A stretch of DNA of 64,000 bases from contig NZ_QBKB01000002.1 of NCBI RefSeq assembly GCF_004137855.1, positions 553,327-617,326 on the forward strand, in the 5' to 3' direction. The DNA comes from Methanohalophilus profundi. Its GTDB lineage: Archaea; Halobacteriota; Methanosarcinia; Methanosarcinales; Methanosarcinaceae. The position numbers were made by a program, and so were the translations under genes. Within the stretch, counting starts at the first letter, position 1. Each line of letters begins with the position of its first letter. Positions 9,079-63,951 of this stretch are shown here, one piece after another. Under the pieces are notes generated by a model that was given only the letters and a program-made list of their open reading frames with translations, did no database searches and had not been told where the DNA came from.

Positions 9079-9402
9079 TCAGATATCCTCTACAATAATA
9101 TCGGATTCATTATCAACACTTTCTAGCATCGATTCAAGTTCTGCGAGATCATCATCCAATGACGATATTTCCTCATCGGTATCTAGCATCGATTCAAGTT
9201 CTGCGAGATCATCATCCAATGACGATATTTCCTCATCGGTAAGAGCTGCTCCTTCCTGTGCGAGTATATCTTCCGCATCTTCCGCAACATCTTCGGATGC
9301 AGTTTCATTTTCTACTTCTGAATCACTCTGGTCTGTACAACCCGAAACCATCAGGGATGATAGCATGAGCAAGACAAGCAGTAATGACATGGACTTTTTC
9401 AT
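9079..9402 (-). CDS. Acidic lipoprotein with a 20-residue tandem duplication
   Basis: A 107-residue lipoprotein. The N-terminus is KK, a hydrophobic core and the lipobox LMVSGC, so it should be lipid-anchored outside the membrane at that cysteine. The mature part is very acidic, with two consecutive copies of the 20-residue unit DEEISSLDDDLAELESMLxx. At DNA level the copies 9121-9180 and 9181-9240 differ at only one base. The ATG at 9402 is preferred because GGAGGA lies 10 bases upstream; an ATG at 9411 overlaps that site. It overlaps or abuts the end of the upstream secreted protein gene and is probably cotranscribed with it. Function unknown. Confidence 0.8.
   Translation of the reverse strand: MKKSMSLLLVLLMLSSLMVSGCTDQSDSEVENETASEDVAEDAEDILAQEGAALTDEEISSLDDDLAELESMLDTDEEISSLDDDLAELESMLESVDNESDIIVEDI
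9121..9240. repeat. Tandem 60-bp direct repeat within a lipoprotein gene
   Basis: Two adjacent 60-bp units, 9121-9180 and 9181-9240, are identical at 59 of 60 positions as read by eye (the first base differs). The unit is a multiple of three and keeps the reading frame, duplicating a 20-residue acidic helix. Near-identity points to a recent duplication or ongoing copy-number change by slippage. Confidence 0.95.
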
Positions 9403-9407
9403 GAGAT

Positions 9408-10601
9408 TCATTCCTCCGCAGAATAGGTTCCTGCCCATTCCATGGTTTCAGAATCCGTGGTATAGGTTCCTTCCCCGGTGAACACCGTGCTACCTGTACC
9501 TGTGGCATCAATGGAGATATTCTCCCCTGAAACCATCATAGTAAGACGGCTGCCATTGATATGAGCATCTCCTGTGAAGTCAAGATATACTGCTGCAGGA
9601 GTGCCTCTACCCATGGATTCTTCGGGAGTGAACCGCTCATATTCCCCGTCCATCTCTATGGTTGCATCACCCGTCAGGTCCTTCACAACAAGTTTTGCAT
9701 CTGTTGCCGAGAGGTTTATATCGAAATTACCGGAAATCACGGCTGTACCATTGCCATTGGCACTGACATTTGTATCTTCTGAAAAGTTAGCAAATCCCTG
9801 CCTGTAATCTTTCAGGAATGTCAGGCTGTCACGGAGTACATCGTTGGCCTGACGTGTAGCATTCACTGACTGTTGCATGTAGGCAAGGGATTCACTGCTG
9901 CCTTGCTCTGCATCAAGGGCCAGTTCACGATATTCTGATGCATTTCCAATCAGCGCATTATACTCCTCAAGCATTAGTTCGACTTCTGTGGTATCCACTC
10001 CACTCTCATTGAGACGCTCTATTTCGGACTCGAGACGCTCGGAAATGGAATCGGCTTTATCAATATAATTTCCAACACCGCCAACACCGTTCAGAAACCT
10101 GAATTTGTATAGGTCCTTTGAAACGTCATGCCAGACCGTACGTACATCCCGTGCAATTTCTGCAAGCTCTTCCTGGTCTTCAGCGCTTTCGAGTTTTTCC
10201 TGCTGCTCTTCAAGTTGGCCGATGTATTCATCGATTCTTTCGATGGAATCCTCGTTATCCTCGAAATCTTCTTTTGTATCGGACAGACGGGTTACCATGT
10301 AGTTGATCGTATCATTGAGATACACACTGGACACATTGCATACAACTTCGGAATTAGCAGAGATTTGCCCCATTTGGACCCTGTCCGTAACATTCAGGAG
10401 ATGTTGCCTGGAATTGTCATAATTAATCTTCATCCGCTCCATTTGTCCCGGGACATCATCAGGAACTGAAGTATTATTAGGACGCATATTGTCCCAATCC
10501 ACATTCATTCTATTATCTGGCTTTGCAACTGCAACCGCTGTAAACATACTTGCACACATTGCAATGACCAGAACAAAAGTCAATATCTTTCTGAAATCCA
10601 T
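9408..10601 (-). CDS. Secreted coiled-coil protein of unknown function
   Basis: A 397-residue exported protein. A Sec signal peptide (DFRKI, then LTFVLVIAMCASMFTAVAVA) ends near residue 28. Residues about 60-260 are helical and rich in E, D and Q with heptad-like spacing, suggesting coiled coil. Residues about 270-397 are rich in G, T, S and alternating hydrophobics and look beta-stranded. Several N-x-S/T sites are present. The ATG at 10601 follows AAGGAGGATTGAG, an excellent ribosome-binding site. The lipoprotein gene follows directly. No family is recognised. The divergent MacB-like transporter suggests an envelope role, which is inference. Confidence 0.8.
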   Translation of the reverse strand: MDFRKILTFVLVIAMCASMFTAVAVAKPDNRMNVDWDNMRPNNTSVPDDVPGQMERMKINYDNSRQHLLNVTDRVQMGQISANSEVVCNVSSVYLNDTINYMVTRLSDTKEDFEDNEDSIERIDEYIGQLEEQQEKLESAEDQEELAEIARDVRTVWHDVSKDLYKFRFLNGVGGVGNYIDKADSISERLESEIERLNESGVDTTEVELMLEEYNALIGNASEYRELALDAEQGSSESLAYMQQSVNATRQANDVLRDSLTFLKDYRQGFANFSEDTNVSANGNGTAVISGNFDINLSATDAKLVVKDLTGDATIEMDGEYERFTPEESMGRGTPAAVYLDFTGDAHINGSRLTMMVSGENISIDATGTGSTVFTGEGTYTTDSETMEWAGTYSAEE

Positions 10602-56090: not shown

Positions 56091-56327
56091 TCATTCAATT
56101 ACATACCGATAATAGGGGGCCTCTCCTGCAGTCTGGCTTTTGCGGGTAATTTTCACTACGTCTCCCACTTCAGCACCAATTTCTTTAATAACAGGATCTT
56201 CTATCTTGATTTTAGGTAGCTGTTCCCTACCAATATTATACTCTTTAAGAACAGATTTTATTTCATCCTCATCAATAATTTCATGACGGGGAATGAATTC
56301 ATGATCAAGCAGGCTGAACTTACTCAA
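56091..56327 (-). CDS. rpoH: RNA polymerase subunit H
   Basis: A 78-residue archaeal Rpb5-like subunit. It reads SKFSLLDHEFIPRHEIIDED at the start, EQLPKIKIEDPVIKEIGAEVGDVVKITRKS in the middle and APYYRYVIE at the end, all typical. The TTG start at 56327 is supported by AGGAGG seven bases upstream, one of the best Shine-Dalgarno sites in the window. The longer open frame runs into tRNA-Lys and is not coding. It heads the polymerase operon. Confidence 0.95.
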   Translation of the reverse strand: MSKFSLLDHEFIPRHEIIDEDEIKSVLKEYNIGREQLPKIKIEDPVIKEIGAEVGDVVKITRKSQTAGEAPYYRYVIE

Positions 56328-56379
56328 ATAATATCCTCCTAAAAAATCTGCAGGTAAATGTTTCCCATAATTTTGTGGC

Positions 56380-56452
<73 letters not shown>

Positions 56453-56477
56453 ACAATGTTTGCCGCATACACCATTC

Positions 56478-56671: not shown

Positions 56672-57907
56672 TTATGTCCCACATTCCCAGCCACCCATAT
56701 ATTCTGCCTGTTTGGGAGAATACGAGTCTATTTCGACATCAAGAGATTCCAGTTTGAGCCTGGCCACACGCATATCCAGATCAGGAGGTACCGCATGCAC
56801 CCCTACATCAAGTTTATTCTCGGCAATATAACGCGCACATTGGGCCTGGTTAGCAAAACTCATATCCATCACTTCAGCCGGATGACCATCGCCTGCAGCA
56901 AGATTTACCAACCTCCCATCGGCAAGAACATTAATGTGTTTACCGCCTACCGTATATTCTTTGATATTTTTCCTGACATCCCTTACTGAAGAAGACAATG
57001 CAACAAGATCTTCCAGATTTATTTCCACATTGAAGTGTCCGGAATTGGCAAGTATGGCACCATCTTTCATCACCTCAAAATGACCCCTGTTCAGTACATC
57101 AGTATTTCCAGTGGTCATCACAAAGATATCACCATATAGAGCGGCCTTTTGCATAGGCATGACCCTGAAGCCATCCATTTTTGCTTCAAGAGCACGTATT
57201 GGATCCACTTCTGTCACAATGAGATTTGCACCCAGGCCTGAAGCCCGCATGGCAGCACCACGACCACACCAGCCATAGCCACCAATGACAACGGTCTTAC
57301 CCGCCACTAACAGGTTGGTAGTCCTCATAATCGCATCCCAGGAAGATTGCCCCGTACCATAACGGTTATCAAAAAGGAATTTGGTCATAGCATCATTTAC
57401 GGCAATTACCGGCATCTTCAGGGCCCCTTCCGCTTCCATTGCCTTGAGACGATGGATCCCTGTGGTAGTTTCCTCACACCCACCCTGTATTGAATCAAGA
57501 AGTTCGGTCCTTTCCGTATGAAGTTTAAAAATCAGATCCGCACCGTCATCGATGGTTATATCCGGACCAATATCAAGTACCCTGTCGATAGATCCATAAT
57601 ATTCCTTGCTGGAACAATCATATTTTGCAAAACAATCGATATTATCCTTCATATCCAGAGCCATAGCCACATCATTCTGCGTACTCAGAGGATTACAACC
57701 GGTAATAGCAACTTCGCCCCCTCCTGCAGCAAGGGTTTCTACCAATACGGCAGTCTTTGCCTCTACATGAAGTGCCATTGCTATCCTGTGACCTTTCAGA
57801 GGTTTTTCATCTTCGAATTCCTTCCTGATTATAGAAAGAACAGGCATATGATTCCTGGCCCACTCAATTTTTTGTTCACCAGATTCAATAATTTCCTCAT
57901 CGATCAT
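56672..57907 (-). CDS. Archaeal-type adenosylhomocysteinase family protein (SAH or S-inosylhomocysteine hydrolase)
   Basis: A 411-residue member of the SAH hydrolase family. It shows KPLKGHRIAMALHVEAKTAVL, DDGADLIFKLHTER, GCEETTTGIHRL near residues 146-157, NDAMTKFLFDNRYGTGQS, the NAD motif VIGGYGWCGRGAAMRASGLGA near 213-233, and the ending QAEYMGGWECGT. It is the short archaeal form. The MJ1388 homologue in Methanocaldococcus acts on S-inosylhomocysteine, so that substrate is possible. A second, bacterial-type paralogue lies at 61118-62524. ATG at 57907 follows GAGGTATTGT. Confidence 0.92.
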   Translation of the reverse strand: MIDEEIIESGEQKIEWARNHMPVLSIIRKEFEDEKPLKGHRIAMALHVEAKTAVLVETLAAGGGEVAITGCNPLSTQNDVAMALDMKDNIDCFAKYDCSSKEYYGSIDRVLDIGPDITIDDGADLIFKLHTERTELLDSIQGGCEETTTGIHRLKAMEAEGALKMPVIAVNDAMTKFLFDNRYGTGQSSWDAIMRTTNLLVAGKTVVIGGYGWCGRGAAMRASGLGANLIVTEVDPIRALEAKMDGFRVMPMQKAALYGDIFVMTTGNTDVLNRGHFEVMKDGAILANSGHFNVEINLEDLVALSSSVRDVRKNIKEYTVGGKHINVLADGRLVNLAAGDGHPAEVMDMSFANQAQCARYIAENKLDVGVHAVPPDLDMRVARLKLESLDVEIDSYSPKQAEYMGGWECGT

Positions 57908-58280
57908 ACAATACCTCATTTGATAATGACTCTATTAAAAAATACTTAAAATTTCTAATTCTTCACAATCCCACACAATGGAATACAACGACAATGTTTG
58001 GGAAAAACAAAAAGCTGACGAATGAATATGCTTTGTCTGTAAAATACTTAAACCTTATTAATGCAACCATAAAGGTCACGACAAATTGCAATATTACAAC
58101 CCGCACTTGTAAAGCAACCAAAAATGCAAATAATCCCAAAATTTTCAATTCATTTGCATATGTGATTGCAACATAAGCAACCCCATCAATACAAATTCAA
58201 ATAGCTCCATATAAACAAAATAAGAAGAAATTATGGTTTAATGCACCAGAATTTCTTCCACCTGAGATTTGTCCTATTTT
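57908..58280. other. AT-rich intergenic region
   Basis: About 370 bp between the SAH-hydrolase-family gene and the nucleoside kinase gene, both leftward. The right part includes a T-run (minus strand TTTTAAAAAATAGG) soon after the kinase stop; the left part has the promoter of the hydrolase gene. Short frames on both strands are low-complexity and lack ribosome-binding sites. Confidence 0.4.
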
Positions 58281-59216
58281 TTAAAAGACCGTACCGAAGG
58301 CTTCCTTGAAACGTCTCTTGAAATCCGCTAGCTTAAAGTGATGGTTCTGGGTTCCCTGGTGTTCAATTTTTATAGCACCCATCAAAGATGCAATCCGTCC
58401 TGTGGTTTCCCAATCCAGGTCATTTGTTAGACCATAGAGCAAGCCAGCACGATATGCATCCCCACAACCCGTGGGATCCTGTAAAGCAGCTGGTTTGGCG
58501 GCAGGAATCTGGATTACTTCACCGTCTTTATAGATCAATGAACCTTCCGGACCTTTTGTAACTATAAGAGCTTTGAGCTTTGCAGAGATCTCCTCCTGAC
58601 TCTTGCCAGTCCTCTCTTGAATCAATTGCCACTCATAGTCGTTAACTGTCAACCAGGTAGCCTGCTCTATGAATTCCATTAATTCATCACCATCAAACAT
58701 AGGCAGGCCCTGACCGGGATCAAAGATGAAAGGTATACCCGCACTCACAAATTCCCGGGCGTGCTGAATCATACCTTCCCTGCCATCCGGTGCTACAATG
58801 CCCACTGCAGGATCATTTACATCAAGTACTGAATAATTATGGGAATAATTCATTGCCCCGGGATGGAAGGCAGTTATCTGGTTGTCATCCATATCTGTTG
58901 TAATGAAAGCCTGTGCTGTAAAAGTGTCATCAACCACATTCACATGTTCCCGGTTGATACCCTTCTCATCCATCCATTTTGCATAATTCTCAAAATCGGT
59001 ACCAACTGTTCCCATTGGGAGAGGATTACCACCAAGTAACTTGAGATTGTAGGCTATGTTTCCTGCACAACCTCCAAACTCACGACGCAGTTCAGGTACA
59101 AGGAATGACACATTTAATATATGCACTTTATCCGGTAAAATATGATTCTTGAACTGGTCATTAAAAACCATGATATTATCAAAAGCGAAAGATCCACAAA
59201 TTAAAGCTTTGTCCAT
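58281..59216 (-). CDS. PfkB-family nucleoside kinase, probable adenosine kinase
   Basis: A 311-residue ribokinase-fold kinase. The N-terminal GGCAGNIAYNLKLLGGNPLPMGTVG read near residues 52-76 is the sugar-binding signature, and PTGCGDAYRAGLLYGL near 254-269 is the PfkB catalytic motif with the base aspartate. It lies downstream of GSMT and SDMT in the betaine cassette, where phosphorylating the adenosine released by SAH hydrolase would pull the methyl cycle forward. Adenosine as substrate is inferred from that context; other nucleosides or sugars are possible. Confidence 0.85.
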   Translation of the reverse strand: MDKALICGSFAFDNIMVFNDQFKNHILPDKVHILNVSFLVPELRREFGGCAGNIAYNLKLLGGNPLPMGTVGTDFENYAKWMDEKGINREHVNVVDDTFTAQAFITTDMDDNQITAFHPGAMNYSHNYSVLDVNDPAVGIVAPDGREGMIQHAREFVSAGIPFIFDPGQGLPMFDGDELMEFIEQATWLTVNDYEWQLIQERTGKSQEEISAKLKALIVTKGPEGSLIYKDGEVIQIPAAKPAALQDPTGCGDAYRAGLLYGLTNDLDWETTGRIASLMGAIKIEHQGTQNHHFKLADFKRRFKEAFGTVF

Positions 59217-59296
59217 TTATATGTACTCCTAAATTATGATTCTAGTTTGAATTATAGACCATCCATATGAAAATAAAAAAAAGGTAATTATTCCAA

Positions 59297-60133
59297 TTAT
59301 TTTTTACGTAAATGGAATATACCCCAGGTCAGATATCCGTTATTGCCACCGTTTACCCAGTGGTTGAGGCCCTGTTTCATATTATTGATGTAGTTCTGAC
59401 TGACTACTTTGGAGAGCTCATCTTCCTGACCTTCAGTTTCTTTCAACACTCTTCCATAATGGGTCGGCAGCTGGGAAGCATGTTCCTCAAATTCAATTTC
59501 CTTCATACCATACTTTTTGGCAGATTCCCGATAAAAACCGGGTGAACCGAGGGTTTCCAGATGGATACGGTCCAGTATTGGTTGTAAGACCCCTTCCGGA
59601 CAATCGTCAGTCTGCATCGGATCAGTAAATACAAAATCTCCGCCACTTTTCAGCACACGAGCAACTTCTTTGATAACCTGTTCACGATTACCACTATGAA
59701 GGATTGCATCCTGGGACCATACCACATCGAAAGAGAAATCGGGATAGGGAATTTCTTCAAAGCTACCATCCAAAACTGTTATAAGATGGTTAAGACCCTG
59801 GTCCTCATTCATTTTTCGGTCGCGTTCATTTTCTACTTCACTCAAATTAAGGGCAACTACCTGACAGCCATATTTTTTGGCCAGATACCTGGCAGCTCCA
59901 CCATAACCAGCTCCGATATCCAGAATCTTACTATCCTTATCCAGATTACTTATTTTTGATGCCATCCTTTCAATCGTACGTCGACTGGCGTCAAATATTG
60001 GTTCATCTTCTGAATTATAGAGACCGACATGGATATCCTCGCCGCCCCAGATGGTAAAGTAAAAATTGTCGGCGTCATCGCTATTGTAGTATTCCTGTGC
60101 TTTATCTACTGCGGTTTTTTGGTTTTCAGACAT
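59297..60133 (-). CDS. sdmt: Sarcosine/dimethylglycine N-methyltransferase
   Basis: A 278-residue class I SAM methyltransferase. The SAM motif ILDIGAGYGGAARYLAKKYG lies near residues 69-88, with GSFEEIPYPDFSFDVVWSQDAILHS near 123-147 and VARVLKSGGDFVFTDPM near 158-174. This is the enzyme type that performs the last methylations, from sarcosine or dimethylglycine to betaine, in halophiles. It lies 24 bp downstream of the glycine/sarcosine methyltransferase gene and is surely cotranscribed. Confidence 0.92.
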   Translation of the reverse strand: MSENQKTAVDKAQEYYNSDDADNFYFTIWGGEDIHVGLYNSEDEPIFDASRRTIERMASKISNLDKDSKILDIGAGYGGAARYLAKKYGCQVVALNLSEVENERDRKMNEDQGLNHLITVLDGSFEEIPYPDFSFDVVWSQDAILHSGNREQVIKEVARVLKSGGDFVFTDPMQTDDCPEGVLQPILDRIHLETLGSPGFYRESAKKYGMKEIEFEEHASQLPTHYGRVLKETEGQEDELSKVVSQNYINNMKQGLNHWVNGGNNGYLTWGIFHLRKK

Positions 60134-60157
60134 GTTGATTCCATCTTCCCATATTTG

Positions 60158-60955
60158 TTAATTTTTTTCTGCAACATGGAGGAAGAAATCAGGCTCATCC
60201 TCTTTGTAGGTCTCTTTAAAGTCCCCAAGGGTGTTTATTTCCTGAAAACCAACTTCATGCAGAAGTTGCCTGGTGTAATCTTTTCTCAAGGGGAACATAT
60301 TGAGATTGTAGACTGAACCATCCGAGAATTCATATCTGAAGCGGGCAAGCCCCTCATCAACATGTTCCGGATAGACTGATACAGTATCCCCACAGTAATA
60401 ATGGGCATGCTTGCTGGAATAACCATCATCCAGTATGGCATCATAGTTACGCTGGTCAAGAAGCAATACACCATCATGTTTCAGCAGCGCATAGAACTCA
60501 GCCAGAGTTTTTCTGCGGTCGCCTTCATCGAAAAGGTGTGTAAATGAATTACCCAGACATACAATAGCATCGAATTTGTCATGGATGTCCTTATTCATCC
60601 ATCTCCAATCAGCCTGAACGGTCCTCATCAAATACCCATGATCACGGGCATTATCGAAGGCCTTGGCAAGCATTTCGGCACTGCCATCTGCACTTACGAC
60701 ATCAAAACCTGCCTGAAGTAAACGAACAGAATTAAAACCGGTGCCTGTTGCCACATCGAGTATTTTCTCAACACCTCTCTTTTTCAGGATGTTTATGATA
60801 GTATCTCCTTCGCCCTTGGCACGGCTTTCCCAGTCGATGAGTTCGTCCCATTTATCAACAAATCCAGGAACATACTCTTCCTCATAATGGTCCGATTCCC
60901 TTACTTCTATTGGATTATCTCCAAAATCCTGTTCTTCTTCTTCTACTTGGTTCAT
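60158..60955 (-). CDS. gsmt: Glycine/sarcosine N-methyltransferase
   Basis: A 265-residue SAM methyltransferase starting NQVEEEEQDFGDNPIEVRES, close to the GSMT known from Methanohalophilus portucalensis as I remember it. The SAM motif ILDVATGTGFNSVRLLQAGF is near residues 61-80, FDAIVCLGNSFTHLF near 123-137, and LLDQRNYDAILDDGYSSKHAH near 161-181, the latter with substrate-binding residues. It makes sarcosine and dimethylglycine from glycine. GGAGG lies six bases before the ATG. High acidity suits a salt-rich cytoplasm. Confidence 0.93.
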   Translation of the reverse strand: MNQVEEEEQDFGDNPIEVRESDHYEEEYVPGFVDKWDELIDWESRAKGEGDTIINILKKRGVEKILDVATGTGFNSVRLLQAGFDVVSADGSAEMLAKAFDNARDHGYLMRTVQADWRWMNKDIHDKFDAIVCLGNSFTHLFDEGDRRKTLAEFYALLKHDGVLLLDQRNYDAILDDGYSSKHAHYYCGDTVSVYPEHVDEGLARFRYEFSDGSVYNLNMFPLRKDYTRQLLHEVGFQEINTLGDFKETYKEDEPDFFLHVAEKN

Positions 60956-61066
60956 GTAGATCCTCCTATTGTTATTTAATGTAGTATATTTACAAATACA
61001 TTCGATTGTTGCTATTCGCCTGGCTCATGCATTCATGAATCCAGAATAGATTAAGCGAAATTAATG

Positions 61067-61092
61067 AAGGGCCCCCACCCCGGGGAGCCCTT
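61067..61092 (-). other. Strong GC hairpin between sahH and gsmt
   Basis: A near-perfect inverted repeat, AAGGGC-TCCCC facing GGGG-GCCCTT, in otherwise AT-rich DNA. On the transcribed strand it is not followed by a T-run, so it fits an RNA-stabilising or processing element, or a weak terminator, between the first and second parts of the betaine cassette. Confidence 0.6.
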
Positions 61093-61117
61093 ATCCAAAA
61101 ATCCATAATTTAATTAT

Positions 61118-62524
61118 TCAGTATCGGTAATGTTCTGGTTTGTAAGGTCCTCCAACAGGGACACCGATGTATTCAGCCTGTTCTTGTGACATTTCGGTCA
61201 ATTTAGCACCAAGTTTTTTGAGGTGCAACTTTGCAACCTCTTCATCCAGTACTTTTGACAATCGATAAACGCCAACTTCCTTTGGACTCTCCCAGAGATC
61301 GATCTGCGCAAGTGTCTGGTTTGTGAAACTGTTTGACATGACAAAACTCGGGTGGCCTGTTGCAAGGCCCAGATTGACAAGTCTACCTTCTGCCAGCACA
61401 TATATGGAATGTCCATCAGGGAACTGGTATTCATCTACTTGTGGCTTGATATTGATCCTTTTAACAGTATCCATATTGTTAAGTGCATCAACCTGGATCT
61501 CATTATCAAAATGGCCTATGTTACAGACAATTGCCTGGTCTTTCATGTTAGACATGTGTTCGGTCGTAAGTACATCACAGTTGCCTGTTGTGGTAACATA
61601 AATATCACCATAGGGCAGTGCATCCTCAACAGTCATAACATCATAGCCTTCCATCAATGCCTGCAGTGCGCAGATTGGATCGGTTTCTGTAATAATCACT
61701 CTTGCCTTGTGATTAGCCAGTGCTTCTGCTGAGCCTTTACCAACATCACCATAACCACAAACAACTGCAACCTTACCTGCAATCATCACATCAGTACCAC
61801 GTTTTATGGCATCTACAAGGGATTCCCTGCATCCGTAGACATTGTCGAATTTACTCTTGGTTACAGAGTCATTGACATTTATAGCAGGTGTAAGAAGATC
61901 TCCCTTCCTTTCCCAGTGATACAATCTGTGCACACCGGTGGTTGTTTCCTCGGACACACCCTTCCAATCAGCAACCGCTTTATGCCAGAATTGAGGATCT
62001 TCCTTCAGGGATTTTTTAAGCACTTCATTCTGGGCTATAAGTTCCTTGTTGTCTGTAGGTTCATCAAGGATGGAAGGGTCATCTTCTGCTGCATACCCAC
62101 GATGCATCATCAGAGTGGCATCTCCACCATCATCCACAATGAGATTTGGACCTTTACCATCCGGCCAGGTCAATGCCTTTTTGGTGCACCACCAGTAATC
62201 ATCAAGTGTTTCACCCTTCCATGCAAAAACCGGAACACCTGTTTCTGCTATTGCAGCTGCTGCTTCATCCTGGGTTGAGAATATATTACATGATGCCCAG
62301 CGCACATCTGCACCGAGTTCAACCAGTGTCTCAATAAGAACTGCAGTTTGAACAGTCATGTGAAGACTGCCACTTATACGTGCTCCTTTAAGTGGTTTCA
62401 TAGGCCCGTACTTTTCACGTGTGGCCATAAGACCCGGCATTTCCTGTTCAGCTATATTTAACTGCTTGCGACCGGAGTCAGCAAGTCCGATATCTTTAAC
62501 TTTATAATCCTTATTTGTAACCAT
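61118..62524 (-). CDS. ahcY: Adenosylhomocysteinase, bacterial type
   Basis: A 468-residue SAH hydrolase splitting SAH into homocysteine and adenosine. It has [22 protein letters not shown] near residues 52-73, [29 protein letters not shown] near 188-202, [13 protein letters not shown], and the NAD motif [18 protein letters not shown] near 254-271, ending PYKPEHYRY. The insertion around residues 135-180 marks the long bacterial/eukaryotic form, unlike the 411-residue archaeal paralogue at 56672. It removes the SAH that inhibits the two methyltransferases. Confidence 0.96.
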
Positions 62525-62549
62525 ATTTTCACCAATAATTAATCATCTT

Positions 62550-62580
62550 CTTAGCAACGCTAAGATTCCAAATATACTTC
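62550..62580 (-). promoter_or_regulatory. Promoter of ahcY with a palindrome at the predicted start
   Basis: A TATA-like AGTATATTTGG (minus strand) lies at about 62569-62579. Twenty to thirty bases downstream is the perfect palindrome CTTAGC-GTT-GCTAAG at 62550-62564. This gives ahcY a likely promoter of its own apart from metK, with a possible operator or leader hairpin. Confidence 0.45.
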
Positions 62581-62630
62581 TAAATACCTAGTACCAATCT
62601 AAATAGCGACTATTGTGATTTAGACAAAAA

Positions 62631-63830
62631 TCATTTCACTACGTTGAGATTGAATTTTCCTTTGAGGCTATCCACCTTGTCAAGTTGTTCCCATGGGAAA
62701 ATATTCCTGCCAAAATGACCATAAGAAGATGCCTGCCTGTATGACCAACCTTTAGGATGCAGTAAATTCAGATCTTCTATCAAGGCTGCCGGTCTGAAAT
62801 CAAATATTTCACCGGATTCAAGTACATCCTGAATTTCCTGGTCTTCTATTACACCTGTACCATAGGTATCAACATTGATACTGAGAGGCTTTGAGACACC
62901 AATAGCATAAGCTACCTGGATTTCACATTTATCGGCAAGACCTGCTGCAACTATGTTTTTGGCGACATATCTTGCATAGTATGCTGCTGAACGGTCAACC
63001 TTGGAAGGATCTTTACCCGAGAAAGCTCCCCCACCATGGCTGCCTACTCCTCCATAGGTATCCACGATGATCTTACGTCCGGTAAGTCCTGCATCTGCAT
63101 AGGGACCTCCTAGAACGAATCCTCCTGTTGGGTTTATGTAATACTCGGTATCTGACCTCAACATGCCGGTTGGCTCAAGGACTTCATTGATAAATCCTAC
63201 CATGTCATTACGAACTGTTTCAAGTGGGATGTCGTCAGTCTGCTGTGATATAACTACAGCTGTTATGTGGTCAGGTTTTCCATTTACATATTTCACTGAG
63301 ACCTGTGATTTGGCATCCGGTCTTAAGTAGGACACCCTACCTTCCTGACGGATAGAGTCCAGGTACCGGAGTAGCCTGTGACTAAACGCAATTGGAGCAG
63401 GCATGTACTCATCTGTTTCATTGGTAGCATAACCAAACATCATACCCTGGTCCCCTGCACCCTGCTCTTCATATAACCCTGTACCCTCGGTAACTCCCAT
63501 AGATATGTCAGGGGATTGTTCATGGATTTTTGATATGTATTCAAAGGATTTGTCCCAGAAAAGAAGGTCCTTATGATCATACCCTATATCACGAATAACT
63601 TCACGTGCTATATTCTCTGTATCAATCTGTTCCATACCTTTACAGGTAATTTCACCTGCATTTACCACAAGGTCATGGGCTACAAGTGTTTCACATGCCA
63701 CACGACTGTCAGAATCAGCTTCCAGACATGCATCCAGAACTGCATCAGATACCTGATCACATATCTTATCTGGATGTCCTGCACCGACCGCTTCTGAAGT
63801 AAATACGTGGTCATATTTGAGTTTACTCAT
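62631..63830 (-). CDS. metK: S-adenosylmethionine synthetase, bacterial type
   Basis: A 399-residue enzyme making SAM from methionine and ATP. It has [22 protein letters not shown] near residues 13-34, [28 protein letters not shown] near 124-144, [10 protein letters not shown], the glycine loop [18 protein letters not shown] near 238-255, and [19 protein letters not shown]. This is the bacterial/eukaryotic MetK; archaea normally use a different, MAT-type enzyme, so lateral transfer is likely. The ATG at 63830 follows AGGAG. It leads the betaine cassette and lies directly behind the tandem repeats. Confidence 0.96.
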
Positions 63831-63855
63831 TTTCACACTCCTGTTTTATCTTAAA

Positions 63856-63951
63856 GGTCCGATTGAACGGATACGCTAGAGGTCCGATTGAACGGATACG
63901 TTATAAGGTCCGATTGAACGGATACGTTAAAGGCCCGGATGAACGGACATA
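63856..63951. repeat. Four tandem 20-bp units upstream of metK
   Basis: Three identical copies of GGTCCGATTGAACGGATACG start at 63856, 63881 and 63907, and a diverged fourth copy starts at 63932 (GGCCCGGATGAACGGACATA). Spacers are 5-6 bp, so the period is 25-26 bp, about 2.5 helical turns. Each unit contains TCCG-n6-CGGA, a dyad. The array begins 26 bp upstream of the metK ATG, next to its Shine-Dalgarno, where it would be in the promoter or the 5' leader. Confidence 0.92.

What the first reader, a model, noticed from the sequence alone, without database searches (positions are those of the whole stretch)
58281..63830. Self-contained glycine-betaine synthesis and SAM-recycling cassette
Five leftward genes encode SAM synthetase, SAH hydrolase, glycine/sarcosine methyltransferase, sarcosine/dimethylglycine methyltransferase and a PfkB nucleoside kinase. 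Seen: the motifs and order. Known: GSMT and SDMT make betaine from glycine with three SAM in halophiles, and SAH inhibits such enzymes. Inferred: the kinase removes adenosine, so the block covers SAM supply, product formation and both by-products. Packaging the kinase with the rest is the less described part.
Basis: partly seen in the sequence, partly recalled or inferred. Interest (0 to 1): 0.8.

Follow-up and report, generated by a model that had tools for sequence, protein, structure and literature searches.

The report
Bacterial betaine cassette inside methanogen locus
A salt-loving methane-producing archaeon carries a five-gene block of bacterial type that makes the osmoprotectant betaine and clears its by-products; the block itself is already described, but it sits between the archaeon's own two genes for the same clean-up job and has an unusual repeat array in front of it.

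Summary
In detail: metK, sahH, gsmt, sdmt and a PfkB nucleoside kinase run leftward at 58281-63830. The block is not new: four genes were published for Methanohalophilus in 2011, and all five, kinase included, are named in a 2016 paper (PMC5201303). The adenosine-removal reading is supported: the kinase resembles adenosine kinases, and three PfkB lineages were found at bacterial betaine loci only where metK and sahH are also present (11 of 19 such loci, 0 of 59 others). 'Self-contained' overstates it: homocysteine remethylation is absent. Added here: in 88 of 104 family genomes the native genes of the alternative route (dadD, then sihH) are neighbours; in seven genomes, this one included, the cassette lies between them, so two SAH-clearing routes (adenosine and inosine) share one locus. 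The same gene order occurs in two Desulfuromonadia, which are also nearest in metK, sahH and kinase trees of the sampled loci; block transfer is likely, not proven. A 25-bp hairpin-like repeat before metK, at 4 to 8 copies in seven genomes and one copy in two others, is a candidate control element for which I found no report.

The parts
62631..63830 (-). metK, bacterial-type SAM synthetase; a second enzyme beside the native archaeal MAT (PF01941, G000:C2:1471588)
   Evidence: native MAT; bacterial metK in 9 of 111 family genomes; tree
61118..62524 (-). sahH, bacterial-type SAH hydrolase, 468 aa, HxTxQ motif (H55-MTVQ) typical of SAH-preferring enzymes
   Evidence: motif rule from PMC10978960 section 9
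60158..60955 (-). gsmt, glycine/sarcosine N-methyltransferase
   Evidence: NF051855 487.7 bits against cut-off 350; 10 differences in 258 positions from 5gwx
59297..60133 (-). sdmt, sarcosine/dimethylglycine N-methyltransferase, 278 aa
   Evidence: NF041675 489 bits full length, cut-off 550; nearest solved chain 2o57, 250 bits
58281..59216 (-). PfkB nucleoside kinase, most likely acting as adenosine kinase
   Evidence: Nearest solved chains 3b1r/3b1n (381 bits, deposited as 'Ribokinase, putative'; recalled to be a broad nucleoside kinase), then adenosine kinases 4o1g, 2pkf (204 bits)
63851..63947 (-). Tandem array in front of metK: four 25/26-bp units, core TCCG-TTCAAT-CGGA, cores at 63856-63871, 63881-63896, 63907-63922 (exact) and 63932-63947 (3 differences)
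   Evidence: copy numbers in nine genomes; variants
56672..57919 (-). sihH, native archaeal SAHH homologue, probable S-inosylhomocysteine hydrolase (HxExK motif, H51-VEAK); one border of the insertion
   Evidence: nearest solved chain 7r3a, S-inosyl-L-homocysteine hydrolase; in 107 of 111 family genomes. Its partner dadD lies just beyond the window end, L042:14319-15653

Best explanation
The block is a dedicated, bacterially derived transmethylation cassette for making glycine betaine. MetK makes SAM; GSMT and SDMT put three methyl groups on glycine, giving three SAH; the bacterial-type SAHH splits SAH to homocysteine and adenosine; the kinase turns adenosine into AMP, which pulls the reversible SAHH reaction forward and keeps SAH low. 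Homocysteine is remethylated by enzymes outside the block. In an ancestor of most of the Methanohalophilus genomes searched the cassette entered between dadD and sihH, the native genes that clear SAH through S-inosylhomocysteine and inosine, so the locus now holds both routes. Shown here: gene content, order, motifs, co-occurrence, insertion site, tree positions among sampled loci. Shown by others for relatives: GSMT/SDMT activity, SAH inhibition, SAH preference of the Methanohalophilus and Methanohalobium SAHH tested. Inferred: kinase substrate, co-expression, direction and unity of transfer, and any role of the repeat array.
For: Families and motifs. Co-occurrence in the same 9 of 111 genomes. 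Native set also present: PF01941 in 110 of 111, sihH in 107 of 111, dadD in 105 of 111. Insertion: of 104 genomes with both dadD and sihH, 88 have them adjacent (8-678 bp, dadD first and same strand in all 88); the 7 with 6.4-11.3 kb between them on one strand are cassette genomes (map); same-genus G033 and G037 have the empty site. Kinase logic: at 78 bacterial gsmt loci, PfkB kinases of three lineages were found at 11 of the 19 that have metK and sahH and at 0 of the other 59. Same gene order in two Desulfuromonadia. Trees: methanogens with Desulfuromonadia 100/100 for metK, 99/96 for sahH, 98/94 for the kinase. Biochemistry of relatives: PMC3176816, PMC10978960 Table 1.
Against: No assay of this kinase was seen. 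8 of the 19 bacterial metK+sahH loci show no kinase with the three queries used, and the 11 that do are three lineages, not 11 independent events. The kinase occurs without gsmt in 6 of 7 Desulfuromonadia genomes that have it and unlinked in seven gammaproteobacterial gsmt genomes, so it is a general nucleoside kinase by origin. The metK and sahH trees hold only genes beside gsmt, so a closer relative elsewhere could be missed. gsmt falls next to Spirochaetaceae (89) and sdmt support is weak (83). Lai and Lai place a TATA box before gsmt, so the five genes need not be one transcript.
Confidence: 0.82

Rival explanations
1. The kinase serves both routes or mainly the native one: it phosphorylates inosine from DadD/SIHH as well as adenosine, acting as a general purine nucleoside salvage enzyme for this locus.
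For: Inosine-route genes flank the cassette in 7 genomes; the nearest solved relative, 3b1n, is recalled to have a broad range; the same kinase lineage is found away from sahH and gsmt elsewhere.
Against: In G029 the kinase goes with the SAH-type sahH and no dadD or sihH lies in the 20 kb around. In two Desulfuromonadia it also follows sahH-gsmt-sdmt (dadD and sihH were not searched there). Other lineages have adenosine kinases at the same kind of locus.
Confidence: 0.3
2. The kinase is a passenger that came with the transferred DNA and has no role in betaine synthesis.
For: 8 of 19 bacterial metK+sahH loci show no kinase; 50 of 78 loci show only gsmt and sdmt of the genes searched.
Against: Present in all 9 methanogen cassette genomes and in none of the other 102 family genomes at E 1e-40; different kinase lineages recur at equivalent loci.
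Confidence: 0.1
3. The cassette was assembled piecemeal from several donors rather than transferred as one block.
For: The gsmt tree puts methanogens beside Spirochaetaceae (89) rather than Desulfuromonadia, and sdmt support is weak (83); trees are limited to the loci fetched.
Against: Holding methanogens with the two Desulfuromonadia is not rejected for gsmt (p-AU 0.57) or sdmt (0.37), nor for the kinase with L128 alone (0.11); same gene order in both.
Confidence: 0.15
4. The repeat array before metK is neutral slippage DNA with no function.
For: RNA folding of the leader is no better than shuffles (z -0.49); tandem arrays change by slippage; copy number differs between genomes.
Against: One copy is kept at nearly the same distance from the start codon in G029 and G030 (-44 and -46 against -41); all 39 copies keep the 4-bp stem if G-U counts; exact or one-mismatch copies occur only at this site in the 16 genomes searched.
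Confidence: 0.4

Closest known systems
Betaine-synthesizing gene cluster (sams1-sahh1-gsmt-sdmt-adk) of Methanohalophilus portucalensis (PMC3176816, sections read; PMC5201303, passages read)
   Same: Same genus-level locus: same genes as listed there, 468-aa SAHH, 278-aa SDMT, second SAHH gene downstream
   Different: No difference in gene content seen. Not stated in the passages I read: that sahh2 is of the SIH type, that dadD lies on the other side, that the cassette splits a native gene pair, the Desulfuromonadia twin, or the repeat array
DadD / SIHH route for SAH in methanogens (PMC10978960, sections 7, 9, 10 read)
   Same: Flanking genes dadD and sihH (HxExK) fit it. Its SAH-preferring MeSAHH and MhSAHH, alone among its archaeal enzymes in having the 40-residue segment, fit the cassette enzyme type (their sequences were not compared here)
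   Different: The paper notes further isoforms in these species but, in the sections read, gives no gene neighbourhood; here the SAH-type gene belongs to a bacterial-type cassette placed inside the native pair
Desulfuromonadia loci L110 (Desulfuromusa sp. GH17 MAG) and L128 (LH_M60 MAG)
   Same: metK-sahH-gsmt-sdmt-nucleoside kinase in the same order and strand
   Different: A metF match precedes metK; dadD/sihH not searched there; the kinase of L110 is cut after 38 residues by the contig end
Other bacterial betaine loci: Spirochaetaceae, Phytoactinopolyspora, Roseinatronobacter plasmid
   Same: SAM-cycle genes and a PfkB adenosine-type kinase beside gsmt-sdmt
   Different: Different gene order and kinases of other lineages (3ubo type, M. 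tuberculosis AdoK type)
Halorhodospira halophila gsmt-sdmt operon (PMC7042295, passages seen)
   Same: Methyl-supply genes packaged with the two methyltransferases
   Different: Three tetrahydrofolate genes upstream; no sahH or kinase mentioned in the passages seen

Membership tests
Glycine-methylation betaine pathway (GSMT + SDMT) | GSMT over the curated family cut-off | tested here: met
   NF051855 487.7 bits, cut-off 350; nearly identical to 5gwx
Glycine-methylation betaine pathway (GSMT + SDMT) | SDMT over the curated family cut-off | tested here: not met
   NF041675 covers 1-277 of 278 positions, but 489 bits lies under the cut-off of 550. A 278-aa SDMT of the same genus is enzymatically proven (PMC3176816), so the function stays likely
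Glycine-methylation betaine pathway (GSMT + SDMT) | Betaine made from glycine by this organism | not testable with these tools
   Shown by others for M. portucalensis (PMC3176816)
SAH-preferring SAH hydrolase (bacterial type) | HxTxE(Q) motif | tested here: met
   H55-MTVQ
SAH-preferring SAH hydrolase (bacterial type) | About 40-residue extra segment | tested here: inconclusive
   Inferred from length only: 468 aa against 415 aa of the native paralogue
S-inosylhomocysteine hydrolase (flanking gene) | HxExK motif and best match to a solved SIHH | tested here: met
   H51-VEAK; 7r3a best at 540 bits. Substrate itself not testable
DadD (5'-deoxyadenosine/SAH deaminase) | Curated equivalog model for DadD | tested here: not met
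   NF005557 5'-deoxyadenosine deaminase 411.5 against 522; of the 25 families shown only NF004701, named N-ethylammeline chlorohydrolase, is over its cut-off (776 against 609). The name dadD rests on neighbourhood and family knowledge
Adenosine kinase (PfkB) | PfkB family membership | tested here: met
   PF00294 E 2.3e-39
Adenosine kinase (PfkB) | Over an adenosine or nucleoside kinase equivalog cut-off | tested here: not met
   Best NCBIfam NF041164 nucleoside kinase 113.5 against 450; 'adenosine kinase' is a functional inference
Adenosine kinase (PfkB) | Preference for adenosine | not testable with these tools
   No assay; sequence relatives and gene context only

The most novel reading that the evidence does not exclude
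An interdomain-transferred methyl cycle was spliced into the archaeon's own SAH-clearing gene pair, creating a single locus with two parallel SAH exits (adenosine/AMP and inosine), which is passed between methanogen genera with dadD as one unit (G052), and is set in strength by a copy-number-variable array of small hairpins in the metK leader, a tunable osmolyte control element not described before.
Probability: 0.25. Interest if true: 0.65.

Novelty: already known. Interest (0 to 1): 0.42.

Why it matters
The five-gene block is known, but its setting adds a gene-neighbourhood explanation to an observation in PMC10978960: the SAHHs tested from Methanohalophilus and Methanohalobium prefer SAH although these genomes encode DadD. 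Those enzymes fit the cassette type, and a native SIH-type gene lies next door (Methanohalophilus) or elsewhere in the genome (putative Methanohalobium). The locus lets one test how a cell divides SAH between two routes under a heavy methylation load. The presence of adenosine-type kinases of three lineages beside sahH suggests that adenosine removal, not just SAH hydrolysis, matters for betaine synthesis, which is useful for engineering salt tolerance.

Tried and rejected
A known RNA element before metK: Rfam at gathering thresholds gave only two tRNAs in the window. RNA structure of the metK leader: no better than shuffles. Print records of the array, of the insertion between dadD and sihH, or of cassette transfer: the listings showed no paper that I recognised as reporting them; I opened only the passages and sections named here, so this is a limited search of open papers. 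PMC10742547 (passages) reports gsmt transfer among bacterial groups. Papers on the Burkholderia thailandensis nucleoside kinase: the one hit is about nucleoside diphosphate kinases. No structure prediction was run. The idea that the repeat hairpin mimics a tRNA T-arm was dropped: its loop is six bases, one short (recalled), and nothing tested it.

Limits of the counts. metK, sahH, metF and metH were sought with one query each, kinases with three; other kinase types could be missed. Only 51 of the 78 hold 5 kb on both sides (there: kinase at 6 of 12 with metK+sahH, 0 of 39 without). For one search I gave 30 of the 80 loci's genomes. Tree rows needed at least 70% of the query, so the 38-residue kinase of L110 is not in the kinase tree; L186 and L065 were left out of the gsmt and sdmt trees; L186, L194 and L195 duplicate L128, L154 and L152. 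The class searched is a sample of 244 genomes.
Full report
WHAT IS THERE. [quoted passage not shown] The metK start is best placed at ATG 63830 behind AGGAG. metK, sahH and gsmt pass their NCBIfam cut-offs; sdmt does not (489 of 550 bits, full length), nor does the kinase. GSMT differs from the solved enzyme 5gwx at 10 of 258 aligned positions, by my count on the printed alignment. The genome groups with Methanohalophilus: same-genus G036 has a contig of the same length (181842) as the named record NZ_RDSK01000014.1, Methanohalophilus sp. RSK.

THE BLOCK IS A UNIT. In the 111 genomes of the family that were searched, gsmt at E 3e-22 or better is found in 9 (the next match is 1.4e-11), the kinase at E 1e-40 in the same 9, bacterial metK in the same 9, and the bacterial-type sahH appears as a second, weaker match in the same 9. 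The genes are neighbours in the same order in 8; in G030 they are split over contig ends. The native archaeal SAM synthetase (PF01941) is in 110 of 111, including this genome, so the cassette is a second set and not a replacement. In a phylum sample of 392 genomes, gsmt at E 1e-40 was found in 9: eight of the cassette genomes and one other, G209, below the cut-off.

ALREADY IN PRINT. Lai and Lai 2011 (PMC3176816; section 16 and part 1 of section 21 read) described sams-sahh-gsmt-sdmt in M. portucalensis and the same arrangement in M. mahii, showed gsmt-sdmt co-transcription, and measured SAH inhibition.

WHAT THE KINASE DOES. Its nearest solved relatives are 3b1r/3b1n (381 bits; deposited as 'Ribokinase, putative', recalled to be a broad nucleoside kinase of Burkholderia thailandensis) and adenosine kinases (204 bits). 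Gene context gives a further test. At 78 bacterial gsmt loci (best 80 of 569 confirmed, two archaeal), metK and sahH are both nearby at 19; a PfkB kinase was found at 11 of these 19 and at 0 of the other 59 (Fisher p 1e-8, ignoring relatedness). With 5 kb held on both sides the figures are 6 of 12 and 0 of 39. The kinases belong to three lineages: the nucleoside kinase seen here (two Desulfuromonadia), an M. tuberculosis AdoK type (two Phytoactinopolyspora; one tested, best chain 2pkf, 339 bits) and a 3ubo-type adenosine kinase (seven Spirochaetaceae; one tested, 191 bits). The Roseinatronobacter plasmid locus L053, outside the 78, carries a gene annotated adenosine kinase. Separate recruitment beside sahH is what one expects if adenosine must be removed. 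Against: 8 of 19 show no kinase, the 11 are three lineages only, and this kinase lineage also lives apart from gsmt (6 of 7 Desulfuromonadia that have it, of 244 searched; seven gammaproteobacterial genomes).

WHERE IT SITS. Just beyond the window end is a 444-aa amidohydrolase, dadD-like (L042:14319-15653). It passes the cut-off of a model named N-ethylammeline chlorohydrolase and not that of 5'-deoxyadenosine deaminase, so the name is partly by neighbourhood. On the other side is a 415-aa native SAHH homologue with H51-VEAK, whereas the cassette enzyme has H55-MTVQ. PMC10978960 (sections 7, 9, 10 read) found that HxExK enzymes prefer S-inosylhomocysteine and HxTxE(Q) enzymes prefer SAH. The best solved match of the 415-aa protein is the S-inosylhomocysteine hydrolase 7r3a. 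Of 104 family genomes holding both dadD and sihH, 88 have them next to each other, 8-678 bp apart, dadD first and on the same strand in all 88. Twelve have them further apart on one contig: seven are cassette genomes with 6.4 kb between them (11.3 kb in RSK, which has a further insertion), and five are others. Four have them only on different contigs. Two same-genus genomes, G033 and G037, show the empty site with neighbours conserved. In G029 and G030 (taken to be Methanohalobium, an inference) the cassette is elsewhere and the pair is intact. The simplest reading is that the cassette was inserted between the two native SAH-clearing genes in the Methanohalophilus lineage.

MOVEMENT. Its dadD is 93-95% identical to Methanohalophilus and its cassette proteins 93-97% to this genome, while its sihH is 79-83% like five genomes of its own group and 75% like this one; dadD of others in its group is about 63-66% like this genome's. 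The two genes upstream of dadD are 60-78% like Methanohalophilus; their counterparts in its own group were not held. dadD plus cassette looks to have crossed genera as one piece. Between domains, metK and sahH of the methanogens join the two Desulfuromonadia (100/100 and 99/96), and the kinase is next to those of seven Desulfuromonadia genomes, apart from the gammaproteobacterial ones (98/94). The metK and sahH trees hold only genes beside gsmt, so closer relatives elsewhere are not excluded. The gsmt tree puts methanogens beside Spirochaetaceae (89) and sdmt is weak (83, with one Chloroherpetonaceae row), but holding methanogens with the two Desulfuromonadia is not rejected for gsmt or sdmt, nor for the kinase with L128 (p-AU 0.57, 0.37, 0.11). 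gsmt is rare in that class (2 of 244). Direction bacteria to archaea is inferred from the spread of relatives.

LEADER ARRAY. Directly before metK lie units of 25-26 bp with core TCCG-TTCAAT-CGGA (window 63851-63947). Copies, counting a degenerate first one where present: 4, 6, 6, 4, 8, 5 and 4 in G000, G031, G032, G034, G035, G036 and G052; one in G029 and G030 at nearly the same distance from the start codon. Away from this site, the 16 genomes searched hold only nine two-mismatch matches, against ten for the reversed control. All 39 copies keep the four-base-pair stem if G-U counts (11 have one G-U), with variation in the loop and at two arm positions; copies within an array are not independent, so this is weak. 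Folding of the leader is ordinary (z -0.49). By eye no TATA-like site lies between array and start codon, so it is probably transcribed; that is inference. A perfect 10-bp inverted repeat lies further upstream in G000 (231 bp before the start), with imperfect counterparts in the other six genomes aligned.

VERDICT. Observation confirmed; interpretation mostly right in mechanism, wrong on self-containment and on novelty. The new parts are the setting, the kinase comparison and the repeat array.

Noticed in passing
L042:17140-18221 (about 3.1-4.2 kb beyond the window end): A URO-D-family gene appears as two overlapping ORFs in different frames, matching the first and second parts of the profile: a frameshift or assembly error.
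   Followed up: no
L055:6467-8520 (G029 second gsmt copy): A solitary second gsmt in the putative Methanohalobium genome lies directly beside DDE_3 and HTH transposase-like ORFs, with none of the other cassette genes searched for in 19 kb.
   Followed up: partly
L054:16224-19220 (G029): In the putative Methanohalobium the cassette stands next to a pylD gene and ATP-grasp and radical-SAM genes that may be pylC and pylB; an MFS transporter gene follows the kinase.
   Followed up: partly
L060:13166-18461 (G036, RSK): About 5 kb extra between kinase and sihH, holding a PGF-CTERM protein with an ethylbenzene-dehydrogenase domain.
   Followed up: partly
G029 C1:747975-750521 and 766537-769086: The dadD-sihH pair is duplicated in the putative Methanohalobium genome.
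   Followed up: no
L065 (G209, another family of the phylum), gsmt at 9369-10091: A divergent gsmt (42% identical, below the family cut-off) with none of the other cassette genes searched for in 20 kb.
   Followed up: no
G000:C2:484226-489523 (L002, L003): Two neighbouring PfkB paralogues, 30-32% identical to the cassette kinase, could also act on nucleosides.
   Followed up: no
window 56376-56452 and 56091-56468: tRNA-Lys lies inside the apparent 5' extension of the rpoH (Rpb5 C-domain) ORF, so the gene's real start is probably further downstream.
   Followed up: no
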